Positions 20,391 through 32,037 of a DNA stretch of 34,844 bases are shown here, one piece after another. The notes beneath the pieces were generated by a model, which was not told the DNA's origin, searched no databases, and worked only from the letters and a program-made list of their open reading frames with translations. Both the position numbers and the translations under genes were made by a program. Source of the stretch: an uncultured Oscillospiraceae bacterium (GTDB lineage Bacteria; Bacillota; Clostridia; Oscillospirales; Oscillospiraceae); assembly GCA_950097245.1 (NCBI GenBank), contig CATNCS010000021.1:1-34844 (forward strand), in the 5' to 3' direction. How positions within the stretch are numbered: position 1 is the stretch's first letter; every line of letters begins with the position of its first letter.

Positions 20391-20426
20391 AAAAGTCGCT
20401 GTTTCATATGAAACAGCGGCCTTTTT
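20391..20426. terminator. bidirectional terminator between sdaAA and ktrA
   Basis: A 22-bp perfect palindrome (20397-20418, centred on CATATG) is flanked by A-runs on the left and T-runs on the right, so it terminates transcription from both convergent genes. Confidence 0.88.
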
Positions 20427-21073
20427 TATATCCGCAGGAACTTGTTTACTTCCTTCTGCCGGCCCAGAATCAGCACCGGGCTCCCCCCGTCCAGCACGGT
20501 GTCGGGGCCCACGCCCATGTCCAGCCGTCCGGCCCGGCGGACGCCCAATATGTTGATGCCGTACCGCTTCCGCAGGTCCAGCTGAAGGATGGTCTTCCCC
20601 CGCCACTCCTCCGGCACGGTCAGCTCGAAGATGGAGTAGTCCTCATCCAGCTCAATGTAGTCCAGAATATGCTCCGAGGTGCAGCGGATGGCCGTCCAGG
20701 CCGCCAGCTGCTTCTCCGGATAGACCACCTCGTCGGCGCCGCAGCGCAGCAGAAATTTCTCCTGCACCCCCCGGGAGGCCCGGGCAATGACCTTTTGGGC
20801 TCCCAGCTCCTTCAGCAGGTCGGCGGTCTCCAGGGAGTTTTGAAAGTTGTCCCCAATGGCCACGATGCAGGCGTCAAAGCTGGGGATGTCCAGGGAGGAG
20901 AGGAACTCCCGGCTGGTGCTGTCCCCGATCTGGGCGTTGGTCACATAGGCCAGCGCCCCCTCCACCCGCTCCTCGCTGCTGTCCACCGCCATCACCTGGT
21001 GGCCCAGGTCGTTGAGCTTTCGGGCCACATGCTGGCCAAAGCGGCCCAGTCCGATTAACAGTACAGATTTCAT
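20426..21073 (-). CDS. ktrA: potassium uptake regulatory subunit KtrA (TrkA-N/TrkA-C)
   Basis: A 215-residue cytoplasmic RCK protein that gates the KtrB channel. The Rossmann nucleotide motif GLGRFGQHVA (8-17) and the acidic residue ending strand 2 (VMAVDSSEE, Asp31) bind ATP/ADP or NAD. A TrkA-C (RCK_C) domain fills the last 75 residues, where c-di-AMP binds in characterised homologues. It is the second gene of the ktrB-ktrA pair, 15 bp after ktrB, with AAGGAGG in the gap. Confidence 0.93.
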   Translation of the reverse strand: MKSVLLIGLGRFGQHVARKLNDLGHQVMAVDSSEERVEGALAYVTNAQIGDSTSREFLSSLDIPSFDACIVAIGDNFQNSLETADLLKELGAQKVIARASRGVQEKFLLRCGADEVVYPEKQLAAWTAIRCTSEHILDYIELDEDYSIFELTVPEEWRGKTILQLDLRKRYGINILGVRRAGRLDMGVGPDTVLDGGSPVLILGRQKEVNKFLRI

Positions 21074-21088
21074 CGCTGCCTCCTTTTC

Positions 21089-22414
21089 TCAGCCCACAAT
21101 CAGCTTTTCCCTGGGCAGTCTGGCCGCGCTCCCCCTGCCCTCCGACAGGGCGGCAAAGACCAGGGTCAGCGCCCCTACCCGCCCGCAGTACATCAAAAGA
21201 ATCAGAACGCACCGGGACAGCTGGCCCAGCTGGGGGGTGATCCCCAGGGTGACCCCCACCGTCCCCACCGCCGAGGCCGTCTCAAACAGGCAGGTGAGCA
21301 GGGGCAGGCCCTCCGCCCGGCTGATAATCAGGCCGCCGAAAAAGAACAGGGTCAGATACAGGGTGAGGATGGCCATGGCGCTGCGCACCGTCTCCTCCTC
21401 CACCCGGCGGCCGAAGAAGTGGGTCTCCTCCCTGCGGCGGAAGATGGCGAAGGCGGTGGACACCATCACCGCCAGGGTGGTCACCTTCATGCCCCCCGCC
21501 GTGGACCCGGGAGCCCCCCCGGTGAGCATCAGGATTATCATAATCCCGATGCCGCCCTCGCTCAGCACGTTGAAGTCCACGGTGTTAAAGCCGGCGGTCC
21601 TGGCCGTTACCGACTGGAACAGGGAGCCCCAGAACCGCTCCCCCGGCTCCAGCCCGGCGAACTCAAAAAAGTAGAAGTACACCGCCGGCAGCACCAGCAG
21701 CAGCCCGCTGGTCACCAGCACCACCTTGGTCTGCATCCGGTAGCGCCGGAAGCGCAGGCGGTTGGTCTTCAAATCGCTCCAGGTCATAAAGCCGATGCCG
21801 CCCAGAATAATCAGCGCCATGACAATCAGGTTTACCGCCGGCCGGGCGGCAAAGCCGGTGAGGGAGGAGTAGGGCGCCCGCACCCCCATCAGGTCGAAGC
21901 CCGCGTTGCAGAAGGCGGACACCCCGTGGAACAGCCCGTACCACAGCCCCCGCCAGAGGCCAAACTCCCGGCAGAACACCAGGGACAGCAGGGCGGCCCC
22001 CGTCAGCTCAAAGACGGCCGTCAGGGTGACAATAAAGCCGGTGAACCGGAGGATCCCGCCGATCTGGGGGGCGGAGATGGCGTCCTGCATCAGTCCCCGC
22101 TGCTTCAGGGAGATCCGCTGCCCCGCGGCGGAGGCGATCACCACAGCAAAGGTGACCACCCCCATGCCCCCCACCTGGATGAGGAGGAGCAGCACCCCCT
22201 GCCCAAAGCCGCTCCAGTAGGTGGCGGTGTCCCGGACCACCAGGCCGGTGACGCAGACGGCGGAGGTGGCGGTAAACAGGGCGTCGGAGAGGGGCGCGCC
22301 CAGGCCGTCCCGGGTGGCGAAGGGCAGCATCAGCAGAACAGCCCCCAGCAGGATGGCGGCTCCAAAGCCCAGGATAATAATTTGGGGCGAGGATAATCTC
22401 CTCTTTTTTCCCAT
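21089..22414 (-). CDS. ktrB: potassium uptake membrane subunit KtrB/TrkH family
   Basis: A 441-residue polytopic K+ translocator built of four M1-P-M2 repeats. The first selectivity-filter loop is TSAVCVTGL (50-58); later loops NAGFDL, TARTAGFNTVDF and ETASAVGTVGVTLG carry the conserved glycines, and the GGAPGSTAGGMK stretch forms the intramembrane gating loop typical of KtrB. The length fits KtrB (about 440-450) rather than TrkH (about 480). With KtrA it forms a Na+-linked K+ uptake system for osmotic and turgor control. I see no c-di-AMP (ydaO) riboswitch upstream; instead a MITE-like repeat ends about 40 bp before the start codon. Confidence 0.93.
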   Translation of the reverse strand: MGKKRRLSSPQIIILGFGAAILLGAVLLMLPFATRDGLGAPLSDALFTATSAVCVTGLVVRDTATYWSGFGQGVLLLLIQVGGMGVVTFAVVIASAAGQRISLKQRGLMQDAISAPQIGGILRFTGFIVTLTAVFELTGAALLSLVFCREFGLWRGLWYGLFHGVSAFCNAGFDLMGVRAPYSSLTGFAARPAVNLIVMALIILGGIGFMTWSDLKTNRLRFRRYRMQTKVVLVTSGLLLVLPAVYFYFFEFAGLEPGERFWGSLFQSVTARTAGFNTVDFNVLSEGGIGIMIILMLTGGAPGSTAGGMKVTTLAVMVSTAFAIFRRREETHFFGRRVEEETVRSAMAILTLYLTLFFFGGLIISRAEGLPLLTCLFETASAVGTVGVTLGITPQLGQLSRCVLILLMYCGRVGALTLVFAALSEGRGSAARLPREKLIVG

Positions 22415-22820: not shown

Positions 22821-24017
22821 TCACGGCCCGGCGGGCAGTTCCACGCAGAAGGCGTTGATCCCGCCGGCGCTCTCCGCCCAGATTTTTCCGTGGTGCTCCT
22901 CGGCGATGCCCCGGGCGATGGACAGCCCCAGGCCGTAGCTGCCGTTCAGGCTTCTGGCCCGGTCCAGGCGGTAAAACCGCTTGAAGATGCTGCTCAGCTC
23001 CTCCCCGGGGATGGCCTCCCCGGGGTTGGACACCCGCAGCAGGCACCGCGCCCTGCCCTTCCGCTTCAGCGACACGGTCACCGTTCCGCCAGGCGCGGAA
23101 TATTTTTGGGCGTTATCCAAAAAAATCTCCACTATCTGCCGCAGCCGGGCCCCGCAGCCCCTCACCGTGATCCCCCCCTCGATCTCCTCGGCCAGGGACA
23201 GGCCCCGCTCAAAGAAGAGGGCCTCAAAGGGGAGAATGGCGTCCGCCGTCAGGCGGCTCAGGTCCAGGGGGACGTGGTCCTGTCCGGCCGCCCCGCTGTC
23301 CACCCGGGCCAGCTCCAGCAGGCTCTCCACCAGCCCCCTCATCTGGCGGGACTCGGTGAGAATATTGGCGGCCAGCTGCCGGGAGGACGTCTCCCCCGGG
23401 TTCTGGAGCAGCTCGGCGCTGGTCATGATTACGGTGAGGGGGGTCTTCAGCTCGTGGGAGGCGTCGGCCACAAACTGCCGCTGCTGCTCCCAGACCCGCT
23501 CCACCGGCCGCACCGCCCAGCGGGCCAGCAGAAGGCTGACAAGCAGCAGAATTCCAAAGCCCAGGCAGCCCGCCAGAACGCAGTTGCGGGCGAGGTGGGA
23601 CAGGGCGGCCCGCTCCTGAGACACGTCGGCCAGCACCAGGCAGGTCTCCGGCCCCCCCACCCACAGGTAGCGCAGGCCGTACTCCTCCAGAATGCCGGCG
23701 GGTGCGCCGGCGGCCGCCGCCCGCTGTACCGCGGCCTCCAGGTCGGCCCGGGACAGGCCGTAGGGCGCGCCGTCCCCGGTGAAGGCCTGGCCGTCCCGGC
23801 TCAGGCGCAGGACCAGGCAGGGGAGGCGGAAGTCCTCGGGGAGCCTGTTGTGATGTCCCGGGGGGGCGGGCCGGGCGGCGGCCTGCATCATGCGGAGGCT
23901 CTCCGCCTCCAGCCCCGCCCGGGTAAAACGGACCACCAGCCCCAGGATAACGCAGAGCATGGTCATCAGCAGCGCCATGTTGATGCACACAAGCTTAACG
24001 CGCAGCCGCTTCAGCAT
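22821..24017 (-). CDS. sensor histidine kinase
   Basis: A 398-residue membrane kinase. Transmembrane helices lie at about 8-30 and 146-165, with an extracytoplasmic sensor of roughly 115 residues between them. The H-box is ADASHELKTPLTVI (phospho-acceptor His188), followed by N-box DNAQKY (301-306), F-box FKRFYR and G2 box YGLGLSIA (361-368), all intact. The ATG at 24017 overlaps the response-regulator stop by 7 bp, and GGAGGTGGAG lies upstream. The frame continues open further upstream only inside the regulator gene. No known ligand domain is recognised in the sensor part. The pair is divergent from the VTC-DUF4956-CotH operon and probably controls it. Confidence 0.92.
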   Translation of the reverse strand: MLKRLRVKLVCINMALLMTMLCVILGLVVRFTRAGLEAESLRMMQAAARPAPPGHHNRLPEDFRLPCLVLRLSRDGQAFTGDGAPYGLSRADLEAAVQRAAAAGAPAGILEEYGLRYLWVGGPETCLVLADVSQERAALSHLARNCVLAGCLGFGILLLVSLLLARWAVRPVERVWEQQRQFVADASHELKTPLTVIMTSAELLQNPGETSSRQLAANILTESRQMRGLVESLLELARVDSGAAGQDHVPLDLSRLTADAILPFEALFFERGLSLAEEIEGGITVRGCGARLRQIVEIFLDNAQKYSAPGGTVTVSLKRKGRARCLLRVSNPGEAIPGEELSSIFKRFYRLDRARSLNGSYGLGLSIARGIAEEHHGKIWAESAGGINAFCVELPAGP

Positions 24018-24688
24018 GGCTTCTCCACCTCCAGATGGTAGCCCATCCGCCGGACCGCCTTGATGCGGATGTTGGAGCCGATGCTGGCCAGCTTCTTCCG
24101 GAGAAAGCCCACATAGACCTCCACGTGGTTGTCCACCGCGTTGGAGTCGAAGCCCCACACCCGGGCCAGGATAATCTCCTTGGACAGATTCTGTCCCTGA
24201 TTTTGCAGCAGATAGCGCATCACGTCAAACTCCCGGGCGGACAGGCGGACGCTGTTCTCCCCACACACCAGCATGCCGGAGGCCAGGTCCAGGGCGGTGT
24301 TGCCGCACACCAGCTCGTCCACCTGCCGGCCCTGGCGGCGGAGCAGGGCGTTGATGCAGGCCAGCAGCTCCCGGGAGTCGAAGGGCTTGGTGAGGTAGTA
24401 GTCCGCCCCGGCGTTCAGCCCCTCCACCCGGTCCTCCAGCTCCGACCGGGCCGTCAGCATCAATATCGGGGTGGCGCACCGGCTGGCCCGCACCCGGCGG
24501 GCCACCTGAAAGCCGTCCAGACCGGGCATCATCACGTCCAGAATCAGCAGGTCGTACACCCCCAGCTCGGCGTACTCCGCGCCGGTCTCCCCGTCGTACA
24601 CCGTCTCCACCTGAAAGCCCTTGCCCTCCAGAAGGGTCTTCAGCGACTGTGCCAGCAGCTTTTCGTCCTCAATCACCAGAATTTTCAT
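24011..24688 (-). CDS. OmpR-family response regulator
   Basis: A 225-residue DNA-binding regulator. The receiver has Asp8-Glu9, phospho-acceptor Asp51 (LLILDVMMPG), Thr79 and Lys101 (YYLTKPF). The C-terminal winged helix runs from about residue 125 (LSAREFDVMRYLLQNQGQNLSKEIILARVWG, then VDNHVEVYVGFLRKKL). The ATG at 24688 starts the family consensus MKILVIEDE and follows AGGGGGT. OmpR-type proteins bind tandem 10-11-bp repeats, and exactly such repeats (11-bp period) lie directly upstream of this gene and of the divergent VTC operon, so autoregulation and control of the neighbours are likely. Confidence 0.93.
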   Translation of the reverse strand: MKILVIEDEKLLAQSLKTLLEGKGFQVETVYDGETGAEYAELGVYDLLILDVMMPGLDGFQVARRVRASRCATPILMLTARSELEDRVEGLNAGADYYLTKPFDSRELLACINALLRRQGRQVDELVCGNTALDLASGMLVCGENSVRLSAREFDVMRYLLQNQGQNLSKEIILARVWGFDSNAVDNHVEVYVGFLRKKLASIGSNIRIKAVRRMGYHLEVEKPC

Positions 24689-24733
24689 TGCGTACCCCCT
24701 GAATAGCGGAAATTTTTCCTCCGTCTTTTCTCC

Positions 24734-24839
24734 ATTATAGCAGATAATCCTGAAAGAAAGCTGAAAGAAAGCTGAAAGAAAGTCGTTCAAAAAAGGTTTA
24801 CATCTCTTTCAGCGCTCTTTCAGCCCTCTGTGCTACAGT
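24734..24839. promoter_or_regulatory. divergent promoters with 11-bp tandem activator repeats
   Basis: Three perfect copies of CTGAAAGAAAG lie at 24750-24760, 24761-24771 and 24772-24782; on the minus strand they read CTTTCTTTCAG. The minus-strand extended -10, TGCTATAAT (-10 hexamer 24739-24734), starts exactly 10 bp after the last TTTCAG. Facing the other way, CTCTTTCAGCG (24804-24814) and CTCTTTCAGCC (24815-24825) precede a plus-strand extended -10, TGCTACAGT (hexamer 24834-24839), again exactly 10 bp after TTTCAG. Neither promoter has a recognisable -35; the repeats occupy that place, as in PhoB-type class II activation. Confidence 0.82.
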
Positions 24840-24862
24840 ACGGGGCGAAGGAAGTGATCTGT

Positions 24863-25537
24863 ATGGCGCAATACCGCCACGAATGGAAGCACATGATTGA
24901 CCTCAGCGACCGCATCGCCATCCGCCAGCGGCTGAGGGCGGTGGCCCGGCCGGACGGCCACGCCCGGGACGGGCGCTACCTGATCCGCAGCCTGTACTTC
25001 GACACCCCCGGCGACACCGCCCTGCGGGAGAAGCTGGACGGGGTAAACCGGCGGGAGAAATTCCGCCTGCGCTGCTACAACGGGGACCCCTCCCTCATCC
25101 ATCTGGAGAAGAAGAGCAAGCGGAACGGCCTGGGGTCCAAGGAGCTGACGGAGGTGTCCGCAGCGGAGGTCCGGGCCCTTCTGGAGGGCGACCTGGACTG
25201 GATGGCCCGCAGCGGCCGCACCCTGGTGTGGGAGCTGTACCAGAAGATGCACACTCAGCTCCTGCGGCCCAGGACCATTGTGGACTACATCCGGGAGCCC
25301 TTCGTCTACGCCCCGGGGAACGTCCGGGTCACCATCGACACGGACATCCGTACCGGGCTGAGCCGCACCGATTTTCTGGACCCGGACTGCCTCACCGTCC
25401 CTGCGGGGGACGCCCCCGCCATCCTGGAGGTGAAGTGGGACGAATATCTGCCGGAGATCATCCGGGCCGCCGTCCAGCTGCCCGGGCGGCGGGCCTCCGC
25501 CTTTTCCAAATACGCCGCCTGCCGGATCTACGGGTAG
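24863..25537 (+). CDS. VTC-domain polyphosphate polymerase-like protein
   Basis: A 224-residue soluble protein of the VTC/CYTH-like triphosphate tunnel fold. Charged tunnel motifs are in order: YRHEWKH (4-10), RSLYFDT (42-48), EKFRLR (65-70), HLEKKSK (80-86), an arginine in RPRTIVDY, VRVTIDTDIR (154-163), ILEVKWD (187-193) and SKYA (215-218). Eukaryotic Vtc4 uses this set to polymerise inorganic polyphosphate from ATP; bacterial members lack the SPX and membrane parts, as here, and their product is mostly unproven. The ATG at 24863 is chosen for the GAAGGAAGTG upstream and the motif position. It is the first gene of an operon with DUF4956 and CotH, an association known from other Clostridia. 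The stop codon lies in a dispersed repeat. Confidence 0.88.
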   Translation: MAQYRHEWKHMIDLSDRIAIRQRLRAVARPDGHARDGRYLIRSLYFDTPGDTALREKLDGVNRREKFRLRCYNGDPSLIHLEKKSKRNGLGSKELTEVSAAEVRALLEGDLDWMARSGRTLVWELYQKMHTQLLRPRTIVDYIREPFVYAPGNVRVTIDTDIRTGLSRTDFLDPDCLTVPAGDAPAILEVKWDEYLPEIIRAAVQLPGRRASAFSKYAACRIYG

Positions 25538-25590
25538 AGGCCGGCCCGCGCGCCCCTGTCCAAGGGGGCGGCACAGAGACCGCCCCCTAC
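25534..25590. repeat. short GTAG...CCCCCTAC repeat overlapping the VTC stop
   Basis: A 57-bp stretch starts GTAGAGG (25534-25540), contains GCCCCTGTCCAAGGGGGC as an internal dyad, and ends CGCCCCCTAC (25581-25590). Its first bases include the TAG stop of the VTC gene (25535-25537). The ends and GC-palindromic body resemble the repeats at 226-292 and 10921-11116, though it is the most diverged copy. Confidence 0.5.
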
Positions 25591-25612
25591 CGTTAAAAAA
25601 AGGAGAATTGCT

Positions 25613-26284
25613 ATGACCTTTCAGGACATCTTTAAATCCAGCTTTCTGGAAAACGTCACCGGCGTGTCCATCCTGGACATGGCCGTCGCCCTGGCGCTGG
25701 CCTTCGGCCTGGGGCTGTTTATCTTCCTGGTCTACCAGAAGACCTGCACCGGGGTGATGTACTCCTCCAGCTTCGGGGTCACCCTGGTGGCCCTCACCAT
25801 GATTACCACCCTGGTGATTCTGGCCGTCACCAGCAACGTGGTGCTCTCCCTGGGCATGGTGGGCGCCCTGTCCATCGTCCGGTTCCGCACCGCTATCAAG
25901 GAGCCCCTGGACATCGCCTTCCTGTTCTGGGCCATCGCGGTGGGCATCGTGCTGGCCGCCGGGCTGATCCCTCTGGCGGTGTTTGGCAGCGGGGCCATCG
26001 GGGTTATGCTGCTGGTGTTTGTCAACAGAAAATCCCATGTGAACCCCTACATCCTGGTCCTCCAGTGCGACGGCCAGGACAGCGAGGCCCGGGCCCTGGC
26101 CTATCTGGAACAGCAGACCCTGCGTCAGGCCGTCAAGAGCAAAACCGCCCGGCGGGGGGCGGTGGAGCTGAACCTGGAGCTCCGGCTGAAGTCGGACCGC
26201 ACGGATTTTATCAACACACTGGCCGATATGGAGGGCGTTCAAAGCGCCGTGCTGGTCAGCTACAACGGGGACTACATGGGGTAA
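25613..26284 (+). CDS. DUF4956 membrane protein
   Basis: A 223-residue protein with about four transmembrane helices (near 20-41, 53-73, 101-119 and 120-137) and a soluble C-terminal domain of about 85 residues. The loop LGMVGALSIVRFRTAIKEPLD (80-100), carrying GALSIVRFRT, is the family hallmark and resembles the corresponding loop of MgtC-type proteins. Function is unknown. DUF4956 proteins recur next to VTC and CotH genes, as here (12 bp before cotH), so a membrane platform or channel working with the polymerase is plausible but unproven. AAAGGAG precedes the ATG. Confidence 0.88.
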   Translation: MTFQDIFKSSFLENVTGVSILDMAVALALAFGLGLFIFLVYQKTCTGVMYSSSFGVTLVALTMITTLVILAVTSNVVLSLGMVGALSIVRFRTAIKEPLDIAFLFWAIAVGIVLAAGLIPLAVFGSGAIGVMLLVFVNRKSHVNPYILVLQCDGQDSEARALAYLEQQTLRQAVKSKTARRGAVELNLELRLKSDRTDFINTLADMEGVQSAVLVSYNGDYMG

Positions 26285-26296
26285 GGGGGGAGGTCT

Positions 26297-28036
26297 GTGT
26301 CCACCAGCAAGCATATTGACAGGCTCTGCGCCGGGGGACTGGCTCTGGCGCTGCTGCTCACCCTCCTGTTCGTCAACGGGGAGGCCCTGGGACTCGCCTC
26401 CGCCTCCAAAGCCATGGGCTATGAGGACCGCCTGTTTGACACCAGCCGCGTCCATACCGTCGACATCGTCATGGACGGCTGGGAGGACTTTCTGGCGACC
26501 TGCGAAAACGAGGAGTACTCCCCCTGCACGGCGGTTATCGACGGGGAGAGCTTTCAGAGCGTGGGCCTCCGGGCCAAGGGGAACACCTCCCTGTCCACCG
26601 TGTCCGCCCTGGGCAGCGACCGCTACAGCTTCAAGCTGGAGTTTGACCACTACGAGGCGGGCAAAACCTGCCACGGCCTGGATAAGCTGTGCCTGAACAA
26701 TCTGATTCAGGACAACACCATGATGAAGGACTACCTCACCTACCGCCTCATGGCCCAATTCGGCGCGGCGGCCCCGCTGTGCAGCTTTGTCTTTCTCACC
26801 GTCAACGGGGAGGACTGGGGCCTGTACCTGGCGGTGGAGGGGGTGGAGGAGGCCTTCCTCCAGCGCAATTACGGCAGCGGATACGGCCAGCTGTACAAGC
26901 CGGACAGCATGAGCTTTGGCGGCGGCCGGGGCAACGGCCGGGAGTTCGACATGGACAGGCTGGATTTCTCCCAGCAGTTCTCTCCGCCGGAAGGGCCGGA
27001 GGACCGGGAGGGCTTTCAGCCCCCCGGCAACTTCGGCGGGGAGGCCCCCGGCTTCGGCGGCAGGGGCGGACAGGGTGGCCCCGGCGGCGGGATGGGTTCT
27101 GATGACGTGAAGCTGCAATACATCGACGACAGCCCGGACAGCTATCCCAACATCTTTGACAGCGCCAAGACCGAGGGGGCGGATCAGGCCCGCCTGATTC
27201 AGGCGCTGAAGGCCCTCGGCCAGGGGGAGGCCGCCTCCGCTGTGGACGTGGACGCCGTGCTGCGGTACTTTGTGGTCCACAACTACGTGGTCAACGGGGA
27301 CAGCTACACCGGCTCCATGGTCCACAACTACTACCTCTACGAGGAGGACGGCCTGCTGTCTATGATCCCCTGGGACTACAACCTGGCCTTCGGCACCTTC
27401 CGGGGAAACGACGCCTCCGGGGCGGTGAACGACCCCATCGACAGCCCCCTGTCCGTCACCGGGGACGGCGACCGCCCCATGGCCGACTGGATCTTCTCCC
27501 GGGAGGAGTACACCGCCCTGTACCACCGGTACTTTGCCGAATTCCTGGAGACCGCGGACCCCGCCGCCCTCATTGACCAGGCCCGCGCCCTCATCGCCCC
27601 CTATGTGGAGCGGGACCCCACCAAATTCTGTACCTGTGAGGAGTTTGAGGCCGGCGTCCAGGCCCTGAAGACCTTCTGCGCCCTGCGGACGGAGAGCGTG
27701 GCCGGCCAGCTGGCGGGGACCGTCCCCTCCACCGGCGAGGGGCAGTCCGCCGATCGGGCCGCCCTGGTGGACGCCTCCGGGCTGGACCTGTCTGAGATGG
27801 GCACCATGAATCAGGGCGGCGGCCCCGGCGGCTTTGGCCGTCCCGGGGGAGACCGGGGCGCCCCGGATCAGGGCGGAGCGGTCCCCGCCTTCCGCCCGGA
27901 GGGCGGCAGGCCGGACCGGGACAATCCCGGCCAGGCCCGGGAGGACCCCGCCCCCTGGCTCTGGCTGGCGGCGTCGGTTTTGGCTCTGGCGCCGCTTCTG
28001 CTGGCGGCGCGGCGGTTCAGGCGGTTTGGCCCATAG
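26297..28036 (+). CDS. CotH-family secreted/membrane-anchored protein kinase
   Basis: A 579-residue protein starting with GTG (GGGGGAGG upstream). Residues about 12-34 are a signal peptide or anchor. The CotH fold runs about 52-470: GLRAKGNTSL (91-100, the family R.KGN.S motif), CLNNLIQDNTMMKDYL (132-147), VVNGDSYTG with Asp335, and IPWDYNLAFG (357-366) with Asp360. The two aspartates are 25 residues apart, close to the catalytic and metal-binding pair reported for B. subtilis CotH, a spore-coat Ser kinase. A Gly/Pro-rich low-complexity insert (205-268) splits the fold. A second such tail (476-552) leads to a C-terminal transmembrane helix (553-571) and RRFRR, so the enzyme is probably tethered outside the membrane. 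The target is unknown; nothing ties it to spores here. Confidence 0.88.
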   Translation: MSTSKHIDRLCAGGLALALLLTLLFVNGEALGLASASKAMGYEDRLFDTSRVHTVDIVMDGWEDFLATCENEEYSPCTAVIDGESFQSVGLRAKGNTSLSTVSALGSDRYSFKLEFDHYEAGKTCHGLDKLCLNNLIQDNTMMKDYLTYRLMAQFGAAAPLCSFVFLTVNGEDWGLYLAVEGVEEAFLQRNYGSGYGQLYKPDSMSFGGGRGNGREFDMDRLDFSQQFSPPEGPEDREGFQPPGNFGGEAPGFGGRGGQGGPGGGMGSDDVKLQYIDDSPDSYPNIFDSAKTEGADQARLIQALKALGQGEAASAVDVDAVLRYFVVHNYVVNGDSYTGSMVHNYYLYEEDGLLSMIPWDYNLAFGTFRGNDASGAVNDPIDSPLSVTGDGDRPMADWIFSREEYTALYHRYFAEFLETADPAALIDQARALIAPYVERDPTKFCTCEEFEAGVQALKTFCALRTESVAGQLAGTVPSTGEGQSADRAALVDASGLDLSEMGTMNQGGGPGGFGRPGGDRGAPDQGGAVPAFRPEGGRPDRDNPGQAREDPAPWLWLAASVLALAPLLLAARRFRRFGP

Positions 28037-28041
28037 CGAAA

Positions 28042-28078
28042 AGGCCGGCTGGAGCATGCGCTCCGGCCGGCCTCTTTT
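28042..28078. terminator. bidirectional terminator after cotH and the restriction gene
   Basis: A 14-bp stem (28042-28055 with 28060-28073, one G-T pair) is flanked by AAAA on the left and TCTTTT on the right. It sits between the two convergent stop codons and serves both operons. Confidence 0.82.
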
Positions 28079-30983
28079 ACAGCTTGGCGCTGATGCAGCC
28101 CTCATACCACTGGTGAGGGGGCAGGTCAGACTGATAGGCCTCCTCGAAGAGCGGGTAGAGCTCCTCATAGGTCCGCCCGTCGGAAATGATCCGCTTCAGC
28201 TCAGAGGTCTGAAGGGGGATGATCTTCATGCCGTCCACCCGCCTGCTATTGTCCCCGACGTCGTAATAGGTCATGTGCTTTCTGCCCCGGAAGTCTGAGG
28301 TCACGTTGATGTGCAGGTAGTTCGTCACGAACACGCAGTATGCGTCGGTATTCCCGCTTTTCAGGATGTAATCCCCCAGGTGGCGGGATACCGGCTCCAT
28401 CTCCATCCTGCGCTGGTTGTTTTTGTCGGCCAGGTTGGCCTCCAGCAGAAGGGCGTGCTCCGGGAGTCCCTCCTCCCGGGCGTACTCATAGACAATATCC
28501 GCCCCGCCCCCCGCCGCGTGGGTCTTGGGCAGCAGGTCCGCGTCCAGCGACAGCTTCATGTAGTCCAGCACCCGCCCCCGCCGCCGGCTCACCTTGTACC
28601 AGATGATGCCCAGCACATACTCAAAAATGGTGGGGACGTCGGCGCTGTCCGTCACCATGCTCCGGATGGTGATGTCATTCCGCTTTTCAAAGCAGTCCAG
28701 CAGCCGGAGGAGGTTCTGGTCGGTAAACCGGGTGTCGATCAGGTGCTGGAGGCGGCGGTAGCGCTCGTCCTCCAGGGCGGTGCGGGCCTCCTCCAGCGTG
28801 GCGGCGGAGGTCCCCAGCTCGGCGTTGACACTGTCGATGACGGCGGTCTCCCGGAACACCAGGCCGGCGCTGATCTCCTCCAGGGGACAGTCCTCAAAGA
28901 GCACGTCCGACCGGGTGTAGGCCCGGGCGTAGAGCTCCTCAACGGCGGAGCTGAAAAAGTGCTTGGGGATGATGTCCAGCTTGACGGTTCCGTCCTCGAA
29001 AAGGACCGTGTTGGTGGTTCTGATGTACCGGCGGTTGAGGTCGAAGTAGTCGGAGAGGTTGGCCTTGGCCTTGAACAGGTGCATGACCCGGAAGAACACC
29101 CGCTTGAACTCCGCCTCGGTGGACACCCCGTCAAAGGCGGTCCGCCTTTGGTGCCGGACGGGGGCTTGTTTGATGGCCTTCTGCGAGGTGGTATCAAACA
29201 GATACCTCCGCCACCATATGCCAATCTTGACAGCTCTTGTGGCCTCATATACCTGGGGGAGCGCCCCAAGGTTATGCTCTACATACACGGAATAGAGGCA
29301 GTGATAAAGCCTGGTATAGGCCGGGTCATAGCTGCCGCGGCTCTTCCGGTTCATCCCAACCGCACAGATTACCTCGTCGCTCACCCCGTTATCCAGGAAG
29401 TACTCCAGAGCCGCCTGGTAGTTGTCCATCCCCATCAGCCGGGAGAGGATCACCTCGTCCACAGAGCCTTTCCCCGCCCTGATCTCCCACATGCTGCGGA
29501 GAATCTGTTCCGTATTCTCCGGGCTGGTACACAGGGGCAGCAGATAGGTGAACTCCTCATAGGACAGTGTCTCCGCCCGGGACAGCACATAGAGCATCAC
29601 AATAAAGGGCCGCACCGTCTTACCCTCAACGGCACAGCTGGTCTTCAGCAGCTGCTTCAGGTAGAGAAAGCTGTCTTTGGGAATCTGAAGAAAGTTGTCC
29701 GGCCGGAAGTCCCTGCTGTCAACCGCCTCCATCAGGGCGCGGCCCGCCGGGCTCAGCCTCCGCTCACTGTCAATCAGGCCGATATCCACCAGCCCGGAGG
29801 TCTTCTCCCGGGCGTCCTTGGGCTTGTTGTTGGCATCGCCCTCCAAAAACCCCTTCTCCTTGATAAAATCGTAGTACCGTGTCCGAACCGCGTTGTTTCC
29901 GCTCCAGTACTCCGACCGGTTTTCCTCCCGCTGCCAGAACTCATCCAGCAGCAGCAGCTGCCACTCAATGGCCCGGTTAAAGCCCTTCGTCCGGAAGCTG
30001 GTGGTGCCCAGACTCCAACAGAAGCTCTTATATGGGAATGAACTTGACATAGCGCCCTCCTCCCGATAGTTGACAATCAATACTTCCTCGCTCACCGACA
30101 GCCGGTCTTTGGTGTGATAGCTGGCGTTGGCGTAGCTGTAATTCAGGTGGATTGCCCGGTATTTTCCCCGGTGCTTATCCAGCCATTCCAGCAGAATTTT
30201 GTTCTCCTTCCCCTTGCTCCGCAGCACGTTGGACAGGGCGAAGCGGACCCCCTGGCCGTCCAGCCTGTCCAGAAAGTCCAGCAGCGCCCGCTCCAGCTCC
30301 TCGTTCCAGCCCCCCTGCTCGTTGTAGGGGGCGCAGGCGATCAGATAGGGGGGGTCAGCGTACACAAAGTCCCCCGCGCCCAGGGAGGAGACGTCAAAAT
30401 CCCGAAAATCCCGGCAGGTGAAGCGGCAGTCCTGCTCCTTCAGCCGGTCTATGAAGTCGGACAGCTTGCGCTCCATGTTGGGGTTGAAGTCCCGCTTTCC
30501 CACCGGCAGGTTAAACTCCCCCTGCCGGTTGAAGCGGATCTGGTTGTTAAAGGCGTAGACGATGAGCACATAGAGCATGACCGTGGTATAGTCCTCGTCC
30601 CCCGGCCCCTGCCGGGCCCGGTTGTAGTCGGCCCTCAGCCTCAGATAGCCCTCCCGGTTGTACTCCCCCAGCCCCTTCCCGCTCTCGCAGCCGTAGTGGT
30701 CATAGCCAAAGCGGCCGGCCTGGGAGAGGTGGTACTCCTCGATGATCTGGTAAATCCACCCCAGAACGGTCTCCTTGTCCCGCCTGCGGAAGGTGTCGTA
30801 CAGACGGAGCAGCTCCCGGTTCAGGTCGTTGTAGACCACCCGGCGGCTGGCGGCGTTGACGCCTACGTTGCAGCCGCCGCAGAACAGATCCACAAACAGG
30901 TCGATATTTTTGGGGAACAGAGGCAGTATCTGGGACAGCAGCCTGTATTTTCCCCCGGTGTAGTTCAGCGGTGACTGGATCAT
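28077..30983 (-). CDS. fused Dam-type adenine methylase and AlwI/BspD6I-family restriction endonuclease
   Basis: A 968-residue fusion. Residues 1-306 are a complete D12-class N6-adenine methyltransferase: YTGGKYRLL (8-16), SAM motif VDLFCGGCNVG (31-41), catalytic DPPY (210-213) and a normal end at EEVLIVNY. Residue 312 onward (MSSSFPYKSFCWSLGTTSFR) is an AlwI-type type IIS nuclease. Its C-terminal THAAGGGAD, LLLEANL and MEMEPVSRH align by eye with N.BspD6I, giving Asp829, Glu848 and Glu861 as the probable active site, with the same 13-residue spacing between the two glutamates. A strong ribosome-binding site and in-frame ATG at 30050 could yield free nuclease too. ATG 30983 follows GAGGAG at the end of the upstream methylase gene. 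It should cleave DNA a few bases beside an asymmetric site. Confidence 0.88.
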   Translation of the reverse strand: MIQSPLNYTGGKYRLLSQILPLFPKNIDLFVDLFCGGCNVGVNAASRRVVYNDLNRELLRLYDTFRRRDKETVLGWIYQIIEEYHLSQAGRFGYDHYGCESGKGLGEYNREGYLRLRADYNRARQGPGDEDYTTVMLYVLIVYAFNNQIRFNRQGEFNLPVGKRDFNPNMERKLSDFIDRLKEQDCRFTCRDFRDFDVSSLGAGDFVYADPPYLIACAPYNEQGGWNEELERALLDFLDRLDGQGVRFALSNVLRSKGKENKILLEWLDKHRGKYRAIHLNYSYANASYHTKDRLSVSEEVLIVNYREEGAMSSSFPYKSFCWSLGTTSFRTKGFNRAIEWQLLLLDEFWQREENRSEYWSGNNAVRTRYYDFIKEKGFLEGDANNKPKDAREKTSGLVDIGLIDSERRLSPAGRALMEAVDSRDFRPDNFLQIPKDSFLYLKQLLKTSCAVEGKTVRPFIVMLYVLSRAETLSYEEFTYLLPLCTSPENTEQILRSMWEIRAGKGSVDEVILSRLMGMDNYQAALEYFLDNGVSDEVICAVGMNRKSRGSYDPAYTRLYHCLYSVYVEHNLGALPQVYEATRAVKIGIWWRRYLFDTTSQKAIKQAPVRHQRRTAFDGVSTEAEFKRVFFRVMHLFKAKANLSDYFDLNRRYIRTTNTVLFEDGTVKLDIIPKHFFSSAVEELYARAYTRSDVLFEDCPLEEISAGLVFRETAVIDSVNAELGTSAATLEEARTALEDERYRRLQHLIDTRFTDQNLLRLLDCFEKRNDITIRSMVTDSADVPTIFEYVLGIIWYKVSRRRGRVLDYMKLSLDADLLPKTHAAGGGADIVYEYAREEGLPEHALLLEANLADKNNQRRMEMEPVSRHLGDYILKSGNTDAYCVFVTNYLHINVTSDFRGRKHMTYYDVGDNSRRVDGMKIIPLQTSELKRIISDGRTYEELYPLFEEAYQSDLPPHQWYEGCISAKL
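30048..30065 (-). promoter_or_regulatory. internal ribosome-binding site and start codon at the methylase-nuclease junction
   Basis: Inside the fusion gene the minus strand reads CGGGAGGAGGGCGCT then ATG (ATG at 30050-30048). The AGGAGG core is 6 nt from the ATG, which is in frame and begins the natural N terminus of the AlwI-like nuclease. Translation from here would give a separate 657-residue nuclease. No stop codon separates the two halves. Confidence 0.7.
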
Positions 30984-30984
30984 C

Positions 30985-32037
30985 TCAGCGCTCCTCATCA
31001 AAACAGGTACATAAAAACAGCCGCTCTGCGTTTTCCGTAATCTCTGACTTCCCCGCCGAAAAGGCCCGGTAGCCCTCGGAGAAGACCTGGACCCTGCCCT
31101 TTTGGCCCAAAATGCGGAAAATATCCTCATCCGATATCTTCGCGTTGGAGCGGTCGTTCCCCTTCTCCGCCATATTGTTGTAGGACAGCAGGATATACCG
31201 GGCCCTTACGTCCCGGATCAGGGCCTGGAGGGCCTCCGCCGCCCCCCTGGTGCAGTATTTGCTCTTCATGCCGCTGCGGTCCATCTTTTTGGCCACGCCG
31301 AAGACCTGGGGCTTCCTCCACCGGGCCACGTTCTCCAGCAGGTGGTAGGTGTCGCAGTACTGCCGGGAGTTGTAGGGGGGGTCGATGTAGACCAGGTCGG
31401 CGGTGATGCGCTTCACCAGCTCGTTGGCGTCCTCGTTGAAGCAGCGGTTTTCAGGGTTGTTGTCCACCGCCGCCAGGGGGACGGACAGCTCCAGCGACTG
31501 CTCAAACTCCGCCCCTCTGCGGTAGGAGTCGTAATGGCCGCAGGTCTTGGCAATCCGGTCCATGGCGTAGAGCAGGGCGGTAATCAGAATCGCCCGCTCC
31601 CGGCCGTTGATCTCTCCCCCCTCATAGCTGCGCTCAATGTCCTCCCGGATCCATCCGATTTTCCCGCAGTCCGCCCTGCTGAAATAGGTGTCCGCGAAAT
31701 TTCCCGTCATGTAGTTCTCTCCCCCGTCCCGGAGGGCGTTATACCGGACCACCGCGTCCACAATCCGCCGGGGCTCGTAGGGCTCCGCCCCGAACCAGGC
31801 GAAGTTGCAGATGTAGTTGCTGTACATCAGGTCATTGGTCACCAGAACCCGGTTGGCAAAGGCGGAGGACACCGCCCCGGTCCCGGCGAAGAGGTCCGCC
31901 ACCGACGCGATAGCTCCGCACTCCTCCTCCACCACCCGGGTGATGAAGGGCAGCAGCTTGTACTTGTTCCCCAAATACCTGCGGTTGTTGATCTGGGAGG
32001 TCCTGTACAGCCCCTCCTCCGTCCCGGCAGCGCACAT
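30985..32037 (-). CDS. D12-class N6-adenine DNA methyltransferase (M.FokI N-terminal-like)
   Basis: A 350-residue methyltransferase with RRYLGNKYKLL (19-29), SAM motif VADLFAGTGAVSSAF (46-60), VTNDL, and catalytic DPPYNSRQY (219-227). The arrangement matches the stand-alone or N-terminal methylase domains of FokI-type systems. It is the first gene of the restriction-modification operon; the fused methylase-nuclease gene starts 1 bp after its TGA. Two adenine methylases with one type IIS-like nuclease is what an asymmetric recognition site needs, one per strand. The ATG at 32037 is preceded by GGGGAGGAG. The recognition sequence cannot be read from the gene. Confidence 0.9.
   Translation of the reverse strand: MCAAGTEEGLYRTSQINNRRYLGNKYKLLPFITRVVEEECGAIASVADLFAGTGAVSSAFANRVLVTNDLMYSNYICNFAWFGAEPYEPRRIVDAVVRYNALRDGGENYMTGNFADTYFSRADCGKIGWIREDIERSYEGGEINGRERAILITALLYAMDRIAKTCGHYDSYRRGAEFEQSLELSVPLAAVDNNPENRCFNEDANELVKRITADLVYIDPPYNSRQYCDTYHLLENVARWRKPQVFGVAKKMDRSGMKSKYCTRGAAEALQALIRDVRARYILLSYNNMAEKGNDRSNAKISDEDIFRILGQKGRVQVFSEGYRAFSAGKSEITENAERLFLCTCFDEER

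What the first reader, a model, noticed from the sequence alone, without database searches (positions are those of the whole stretch)
24734..28036. Two-component system wired by promoter geometry to a VTC-DUF4956-CotH surface module
Seen: a divergent pair of promoters, both lacking a -35, both with extended TGC-type -10 boxes, and both with TTTCAG ending exactly 10 bp upstream of the -10 inside 11-bp tandem repeats (three copies one way, two the other). This is what an OmpR-family activator controlling both its own operon and the neighbour should look like. The controlled operon joins a polyphosphate-polymerase-like VTC protein, a DUF4956 membrane protein with a GALSIVRFRT loop and a membrane-tethered CotH-like kinase with both key aspartates present. 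Known: VTC makes polyphosphate in yeast, CotH phosphorylates secreted proteins in Bacillus, and the three families co-occur. Inferred: an inducible envelope phosphate-transfer system, possibly polyphosphate made at the membrane plus phosphorylation of a surface substrate.
Basis: partly seen in the sequence, partly recalled or inferred. Interest (0 to 1): 0.82.

Follow-up and report, generated by a model that had tools for sequence, protein, structure and literature searches.

The report
Two-component switch for VTC-CotH operon
A gut bacterium's two-component regulator appears to switch on both itself and a neighbouring surface-protein operon through two precisely spaced DNA boxes, and relatives use the same box at other envelope genes; the switch is of a familiar kind, while the job of the surface operon is still unknown.

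Summary
Between an OmpR-family regulator/kinase pair and a VTC-DUF4956-CotH operon lie two divergent promoters without a -35, each with TTTCAG-N5-TTTCAG ending 10 bp before the -10. It is far beyond chance: in 300 genomes of the same family the full motif has 123 matches against one reversed-pattern control match. All 12 fetched loci with the orthologous regulator divergent to VTC keep it on both strands. The 5- and 10-bp gaps are strongly preferred. The window's genome has no other site within two mismatches.

The interpretation needs widening. The regulator is not dedicated to VTC: VTC lies within the fetched flank in 7 of 51 related regions. Elsewhere the box precedes ABC-transporter, HtrA-like and other envelope genes, with CiaR-like geometry. 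CotH is one of two interchangeable third genes: of 80 loci, 34 have CotH, 41 a Cthe_2159-type protein, none both, 5 neither, on the same N-terminal anchor. DUF4956 is distantly MgtC-like. Polyphosphate synthesis and surface phosphorylation remain inference. New variant of a known kind.

The parts
22821..24017 (-). sensor histidine kinase, 398 aa, HisKA + HATPase_c
   Evidence: Pfam; a kinase follows the regulator on the same strand in 50 of 51 related regions
24011..24688 (-). OmpR/PhoB-family response regulator, 225 aa
   Evidence: Pfam Response_reg 2.8e-30 and Trans_reg_C 7.9e-19
24734..24739 (-). -10 hexamer TATAAT of the regulator operon, 10 bp from the last TTTCAG
   Evidence: motif statistics
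24750..24782 (-). three tandem 11-bp repeats CTTTCTTTCAG (regulator-side box)
   Evidence: box at 2 mismatches or fewer in 12 of 12 divergent orthologous loci
24804..24825 (+). two tandem 11-bp repeats CTCTTTCAGCG/C (VTC-side box)
   Evidence: box at 2 mismatches or fewer in 12 of 12 divergent orthologous loci
24834..24839 (+). -10 hexamer TACAGT of the VTC operon, 10 bp from the last TTTCAG
24863..25537 (+). VTC-domain protein, 224 aa; cytosolic (inferred)
   Evidence: Pfam VTC 2.3e-38, no other family; profile match to yeast Vtc4 3g3q at 2.8e-4
25613..26284 (+). DUF4956 protein, 223 aa, membrane protein by its hydrophobic stretches (by eye), distantly MgtC-like
   Evidence: Pfam DUF4956 2.5e-10; 65 of 65 orthologues match the NCBIfam MgtC/SapB model, window protein far below its cut-off
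26297..28036 (+). CotH-family protein, 579 aa, GTG start, hydrophobic stretch at each end and Gly-rich linkers (by eye)
   Evidence: Pfam CotH 4.2e-54; PDB 5jd9 2.1e-11; alignment

Best explanation
The kinase senses an envelope signal and phosphorylates the regulator. The regulator binds TTTCAG half-sites one helical turn apart, which take the place of a -35 element, and recruits RNA polymerase at the -10 ten base pairs downstream. In this locus it does so in both directions, raising its own operon and the VTC-DUF4956-CotH operon together. It belongs to a wider TTTCAG network in the same bacterial family, comparable to CiaRH of streptococci, in which the same box precedes ABC-transporter, HtrA-like protease, secreted-protein and VTC genes; in this genome the network appears to have shrunk to this one divergent pair. 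The controlled operon makes a cytosolic VTC enzyme, an MgtC-like membrane protein and a membrane-anchored surface head, here a CotH-type kinase, in relatives often a Cthe_2159-type protein on the same anchor. Shown by sequence: the boxes, their spacing, conservation and company, and the gene families. Inferred: binding by this regulator, activation, the signal, polyphosphate synthesis, topology and the role of the surface head.
For: Full motif TTTCAGN5TTTCAGN10TANNNT: 123 matches in 74 of 300 genomes versus 1 reversed-pattern control match. With gaps free (3-7 and 7-13) and TATANT required, 38 of 64 matches have gaps 5 and 10, 9 more (at 5 and 13) also hold TA...T at 10, and apart from those 5/13 rows no other spacing has more than 5; control 2. 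Free -10 positions lean to TATA(A/C)T without being asked for. 12 of 12 loci with the divergent orthologous regulator have at most 2 of 15 mismatches on both strands, each at p 0.01 or less against 200 dinucleotide shuffles. Of 59 loci with no regulator hit in the flank, 19 have the VTC-strand box at 2 mismatches or fewer but 1 the opposite-strand box. Of 49 regulator orthologues collected by protein alone (50 found, 1 with no usable start), 37 have the box at 2 mismatches or fewer within 200 bp upstream. Genomes with the regulator carry the motif in 35 of 51, those without in 39 of 249, Fisher p 1.4e-13. Of 123 sites 40 have a response-regulator gene downstream and 7 VTC. Most of 39 motif-associated regulators share an N(H/N)VEVY-type recognition-helix stretch; five regulators in the flank of boxless VTC loci have another sequence.
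Against: No binding or expression data. 12 of 49 orthologues lack the box at 2 mismatches or fewer. 40 of 59 VTC loci without a regulator in the flank lack the VTC-strand box at that level. Of 38 genomes with both regulator and VTC, read by eye, 6 have the exact motif before VTC. 39 genomes carry the motif without a regulator hit at E 1e-80; 16 of them have it before a paralogous regulator, and ABC targets are nearly as many there (10) as in genomes with the orthologue (12), so other regulators probably read the same box. The recognition-helix rule has exceptions (L192, L242), and L017, whose VTC has the box at 1 mismatch, has an unlike regulator in its flank. A site overlapping the -35 region could also repress.
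Confidence: 0.8

Rival explanations
1. The boxes are real but are read mainly by a paralogous regulator (the group about 42-53% identical found beside the same motif), so the adjacent kinase/regulator pair is not the main controller of the VTC operon.
For: Such paralogues have the exact box in their own promoters, although they were found through the motif so the match is by construction; most share the recognition-helix stretch. 16 of 39 motif genomes without the orthologue show the motif before such a paralogue.
Against: In the window's genome the box is found only between the adjacent regulator and VTC; where the regulator is divergent to VTC both boxes are kept in 12 of 12 loci; 6 of the 7 VTC sites lie in genomes with the orthologue.
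Confidence: 0.1
2. The regulator represses rather than activates: bound at the -35 region it blocks polymerase until the signal releases it.
For: The site overlaps the -35 region; OmpR-family regulators can do either (recalled).
Against: No -35 at 5 of 6 or better at any of 123 sites, and the 10-bp distance to the -10 is held, as in CiaR promoters, whose predictor used the same 5 and 10 bp gaps (PMC3091779, passages).
Confidence: 0.1
3. The tandem repeats are slippage products without regulatory meaning.
For: The minus-strand copies are perfect and a complete third copy is unique to this window among 123 sites.
Against: Spacing, flanking -10 and family-wide enrichment with one control match; conservation with diverged N5 sequence.
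Confidence: 0.02
4. The VTC-domain protein is not a polyphosphate polymerase but another triphosphate-tunnel enzyme or a binding protein, and the operon serves exopolysaccharide or surface-protein display.
For: Match to Vtc4 is weak (profile 2.8e-4; single sequence no hit), no other domain found in the protein. The accessory set CotH/poly-P polymerase/DUF4956/DUF4832 adjoins pel exopolysaccharide genes in streptococci and clostridia (PMC7112168, passages). 41 of 80 loci have a Cthe_2159-type protein in place of CotH; Pfam calls that family carbohydrate-binding.
Against: Window R68 and R70 align with the yeast Vtc4 RxR pair and are invariant in 43 of 43, as is E189. R264A/R266A/E426N is the catalytically impaired Vtc4 (PMC9911596, passages). 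That the aligned pair is R264/R266 follows from the alignment offset, and E189 as the match of E426 is my inference.
Confidence: 0.4

Closest known systems
CiaRH of streptococci (CiaR box TTTAAG-N5-TTTAAG)
   Same: Two 6-bp direct half-sites with 5 bp between, 10 bp to the -10 (PMC3091779, passages). HtrA-like targets occur in both: 4 motif targets here form an HtrA-like cluster, one member confirmed by Pfam, and HtrA is named a CiaR-regulated protease in the title of PMC10197876 (search listing only). Some orthologues here have TTTAAG in one half-site.
   Different: Half-site is TTTCAG; the host is a clostridial family; VTC-DUF4956-CotH/Cthe_2159 is among the targets. Whether the regulator is a CiaR orthologue was not tested.
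CotH/poly-P polymerase/DUF4956/DUF4832 accessory genes of Gram-positive pel loci (PMC7112168, passages)
   Same: The three gene families side by side.
   Different: Here divergent to a two-component system with a promoter geometry not mentioned in the passages read. pel genes were not looked for here.
Yeast VTC complex (Vtc4; PMC9911596, passages)
   Same: VTC catalytic domain with an RxR pair; possible association with a membrane part.
   Different: 224-aa protein with no other Pfam domain; the membrane part, if any, would be the separate DUF4956 protein.
Bacillus CotH spore-coat protein (PDB 5jd9)
   Same: Sequence match 2.1e-11 and both aspartates kept.
   Different: Hydrophobic N-terminal anchor and Gly-rich linkers; no spore-coat setting seen.
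MgtC/SapB family
   Same: 65 of 65 DUF4956 orthologues match the NCBIfam model NF007431 at 0.01, best 3.6e-10.
   Different: Window protein 33.9 bits against a cut-off of 214; Pfam MgtC matched by 37 of 65 at E up to 1, best 0.039.

Membership tests
OmpR/PhoB-family response regulator | receiver domain plus Trans_reg_C winged helix | tested here: met
OmpR/PhoB-family response regulator | direct-repeat half-sites about one helical turn apart at its promoter | tested here: met
OmpR/PhoB-family response regulator | binding of the repeats by this protein | not testable with these tools
   needs footprinting
CiaR | box TTTAAG-N5-TTTAAG | tested here: not met
   here TTTCAG; single TTTAAG half-sites in some orthologues
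CiaR | 5 and 10 bp spacing | tested here: met
CiaR | protein orthology to streptococcal CiaR | not tested
   no CiaR sequence was fetched
VTC polyphosphate polymerase | VTC domain | tested here: met
VTC polyphosphate polymerase | catalytic RxR pair and glutamate | tested here: inconclusive
   RxR aligned and invariant; glutamate invariant but outside the PDB alignment
VTC polyphosphate polymerase | polyphosphate synthesis from ATP | not testable with these tools
   enzyme assay needed
CotH kinase | CotH domain with both key aspartates | tested here: met
   the role of the two aspartates is recalled
MgtC/SapB | score over the family cut-off | tested here: not met
   33.9 bits against 214; distant resemblance only

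The most novel reading that the evidence does not exclude
VTC plus DUF4956 form a split bacterial counterpart of the yeast VTC complex: polyphosphate is made at the cytosolic face and passed outward through the MgtC-like membrane protein to an exchangeable surface head, CotH or Cthe_2159, on one conserved anchor. Where the head is CotH, exported polyphosphate could supply the phosphate that an extracellular kinase otherwise lacks. The whole device is switched on by envelope stress.
Probability: 0.1. Interest if true: 0.88.

Novelty: new variant of a known kind. Interest (0 to 1): 0.5.

Why it matters
It gives a sequence-defined box by which envelope-response genes of a little-studied gut bacterial family can be listed from genomes alone. 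It ties a recurrent but unexplained gene set (VTC, DUF4956, CotH) to an envelope-type signal. The exchange of CotH for a carbohydrate-binding type of protein on the same anchor suggests to experimenters that the shared work lies in VTC, DUF4956 and the anchor rather than in phosphorylation, which makes the function of the set directly testable.

Tried and rejected
Slippage or chance as the source of the repeats: rejected. Extended -10 as a defining feature: rejected (23 of 123). A dedicated VTC regulator: rejected (VTC in 7 of 51 regions; regions reach about 4.5 kb each side and some are cut by contig ends). RNA element in the window: the Rfam gathering search found nothing, no tRNA. A solved relative of DUF4956: none at E up to 1; a single-sequence PDB search with VTC gave nothing at 0.1. 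Greedy ORF calling mis-called target genes in GC-rich DNA and was replaced, which takes the longest ORF starting 5-260 bp downstream; its single-member clusters include doubtful ORFs, and the regulator cluster has one doubtful member (L242, 35% identical). Labels given by eye (Maf?, PBP1A?, S8?, GT?) are not used. Paper searches for the module or the box listed no description of this regulon; the library lacks most subscription papers. PMC12419801 came up and its passages were irrelevant.
Full report
What was checked. The intergenic stretch 24689-24862 was read and searched for repeats. On the minus strand three perfect 11-mers CTTTCTTTCAG (24750-24782) are followed after 10 bp by TATAAT (24734-24739). 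On the plus strand two 11-mers (24804-24825) hold TTTCAG at 24807-24812 and 24818-24823, followed after 10 bp by TACAGT (24834-24839). The exact tandem TTTCAGN5TTTCAG occurs 3 times in the 2.37-Mb genome, all here, 0 times in the reversed control. With up to 2 mismatches the full motif including the -10 finds only these two sites, while the reversed control finds 1 + 8 chance matches. The assembly is 95.6% complete in 108 contigs, so a site in the missing part cannot be excluded.

Family-wide motif. In 300 genomes drawn from the window's family (the window's own included), TTTCAGN5TTTCAGN10TANNNT has 123 listed matches in 74 genomes and 1 control match. Leaving the gaps free, 38 of 64 matches to TTTCAGN{3,7}TTTCAGN{7,13}TATANT have gaps 5 and 10; 11 have 5 and 13, of which 9 also hold TA...T at 10; 5 have 5 and 12; the other spacings have 1 or 2 each; the control has 2. 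Positions of the -10 that the first pattern left free lean to TATA(A/C)T (T 0.63, A 0.49, A 0.56 or C 0.36), independent support that these are promoters. None of 123 sites has a -35 at 5 of 6 or better; 10 have 4 of 6. TGn precedes the -10 in 23 of 123.

Footprinting at VTC loci. Of 80 VTC loci fetched (466 encoded a relative, the best 80 were kept), 12 have the orthologous regulator divergent to VTC. All 12 keep the box with at most 2 of 15 mismatches on both strands. Of 59 loci with no regulator hit in the flank, 19 have the VTC-strand box at 2 mismatches or fewer, 40 do not, and 1 has the opposite-strand box; of 8 with another regulator, 2 have the VTC-strand box and none the other; L021, with the regulator downstream of the operon, has the VTC-strand box exactly. 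Many flanks are cut by contig ends, so 'no regulator' is a statement about the DNA held. The pattern suggests that the VTC box can outlive the neighbourhood while the regulator's own box goes with the regulator. L025 and L040 are nearly identical and L015 and L081 alike, so the 12 are not independent.

The regulator. Orthologues at E 1e-80 or better are found in 51 of 300 genomes. Of the 49 outside the window with a usable start (of 50), 37 have the box within 200 bp upstream at 2 mismatches or fewer and 12 do not; 20 of 50 have it exactly (the shuffles there keep base composition only). Motif and regulator co-occur: 35 of 51 against 39 of 249. In 51 fetched regions (those 50 and one partial orthologue in G189) a histidine kinase is found on the same strand in 50, VTC in 7, in each of the 7 upstream on the opposite strand, six within about 0.5 kb and one (L266) at about 2.3 kb. 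VTC is slightly commoner in genomes with the regulator, 38 of 51 against 136 of 249, p 0.012; these counts were read by eye. Of those 38 genomes, 6 have the exact motif before VTC. Most of the 21 orthologues and 18 less similar regulators found with the box share a stretch near N(H/N)VEVY(I/V)(S/G)FLRKKL in the recognition helix; L192 and L242 clearly differ, and the regulators in the flanks of the boxless VTC loci L027, L051, L063, L065 and L071 have another sequence, as has that of L017, whose VTC does have a box.

What the box precedes. For 123 sites a downstream ORF was found in 117: 40 response regulators, 22 ABC ATPases, 13 in a heterogeneous secreted-protein cluster, 8 HlyD-like, 7 VTC, 4 HtrA-like, 4 PPIC rotamases, 2 NEW3, 2 DUF4340, 2 of a further pair and 13 singles. 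Families were confirmed by Pfam on one representative each for ABC, HlyD, HtrA, PPIC, NEW3 and DUF4340; of two members of the secreted cluster scanned, one has Cthe_2159 and SLH domains and one has no match. In 35 motif genomes with the orthologous regulator the targets are the regulator (21), ABC (12), VTC (6), HtrA (4), secreted cluster (3), NEW3 (2), HlyD (2), a paralogous regulator (2) and one without ORF. In the 39 without it they include 16 paralogous regulators, 10 ABC, 10 secreted cluster, 6 HlyD, 4 PPIC, 2 DUF4340 and 1 VTC. This looks like an envelope response read by more than one related regulator. The geometry is that of CiaR: in PMC3091779 (passages) the predictor used TTTAAG, 5 bp, TTTAAG, 10 bp, -10.

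The operon. VTC residues R68, R70 and E189 are invariant in 43 of 43 sequences (43 of the 80 loci were aligned, window included); the RxR pair aligns with Vtc4, where R264A/R266A/E426N is the catalytically impaired form (PMC9911596, passages). CotH keeps both aspartates in 27 of 27. 65 of 65 aligned DUF4956 sequences match an MgtC/SapB model, the window's far below its cut-off; 37 of 65 match Pfam MgtC at E up to 1, best 0.039. In the 80 loci the third gene is CotH in 34, a Cthe_2159-type protein in 41, both in 0, neither in 5, some of these cut by the contig end. The two kinds were sorted by BLAST clustering; one Cthe_2159-type protein was scanned, PF14262 at 2.1e-59. Both kinds begin with the same stretch, close to MSTHKxIDxICxxxxxxLLLTxLFMNGExLG (all 34 and 38 of the 41 N-termini were aligned). 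Among the 12 loci with the divergent regulator 9 have CotH and 3 Cthe_2159. The part common to both kinds is VTC, DUF4956 and the anchor.

Verdict. The regulatory reading is well supported and of a known kind. The functional reading, polyphosphate plus surface phosphorylation, is an attractive guess that the exchange of CotH weakens. The set has been noted before next to pel genes (PMC7112168, passages), and VTC and CotH genes in a Clostridium perfringens locus (PMC2879425 and PMC11677781, passages); I found no description of its control by this box in the searches listed under Tried and rejected.

Noticed in passing
window 28077-31130 (-): One 1017-aa protein joins a D12-class adenine methyltransferase (residues 57-319) to an AlwI-type restriction endonuclease (448-981), with a second D12 methyltransferase gene beside it at 30985-32037.
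   Followed up: no
window 24784-24803 and the divergent regions of L004, L008, L014, L015, L025, L069, L081: A short block GTTTACA, ATTTACA or GTTCACA, in the closest relatives preceded by an A run, recurs between the two boxes (by eye). In the window it is not at -35 distance from either -10; it is unexplained.
   Followed up: partly
L004-L083: CotH (34 loci) and Cthe_2159-type proteins (41 loci) replace each other as third gene on the same N-terminal anchor, never together in the DNA held.
   Followed up: yes
L051, L065, L071: A different two-component pair (regulator 44-48% identical) lies upstream on the same strand as VTC without a TTTCAG box at 3 mismatches or fewer, so VTC operons seem to have been paired with two-component systems more than once.
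   Followed up: partly
L167 and L171 (G248, G085): Two regulator orthologues contain an in-frame stop.
   Followed up: no
window 20426-22414 (-): TrkH and TrkA-type potassium uptake genes lie downstream of the kinase on the same strand.
   Followed up: no
G276 (L254, L290): VTC carries the exact box while the regulator orthologue, on another contig, has no recognisable box within 200 bp of its start: the box kept at the target only.
   Followed up: partly
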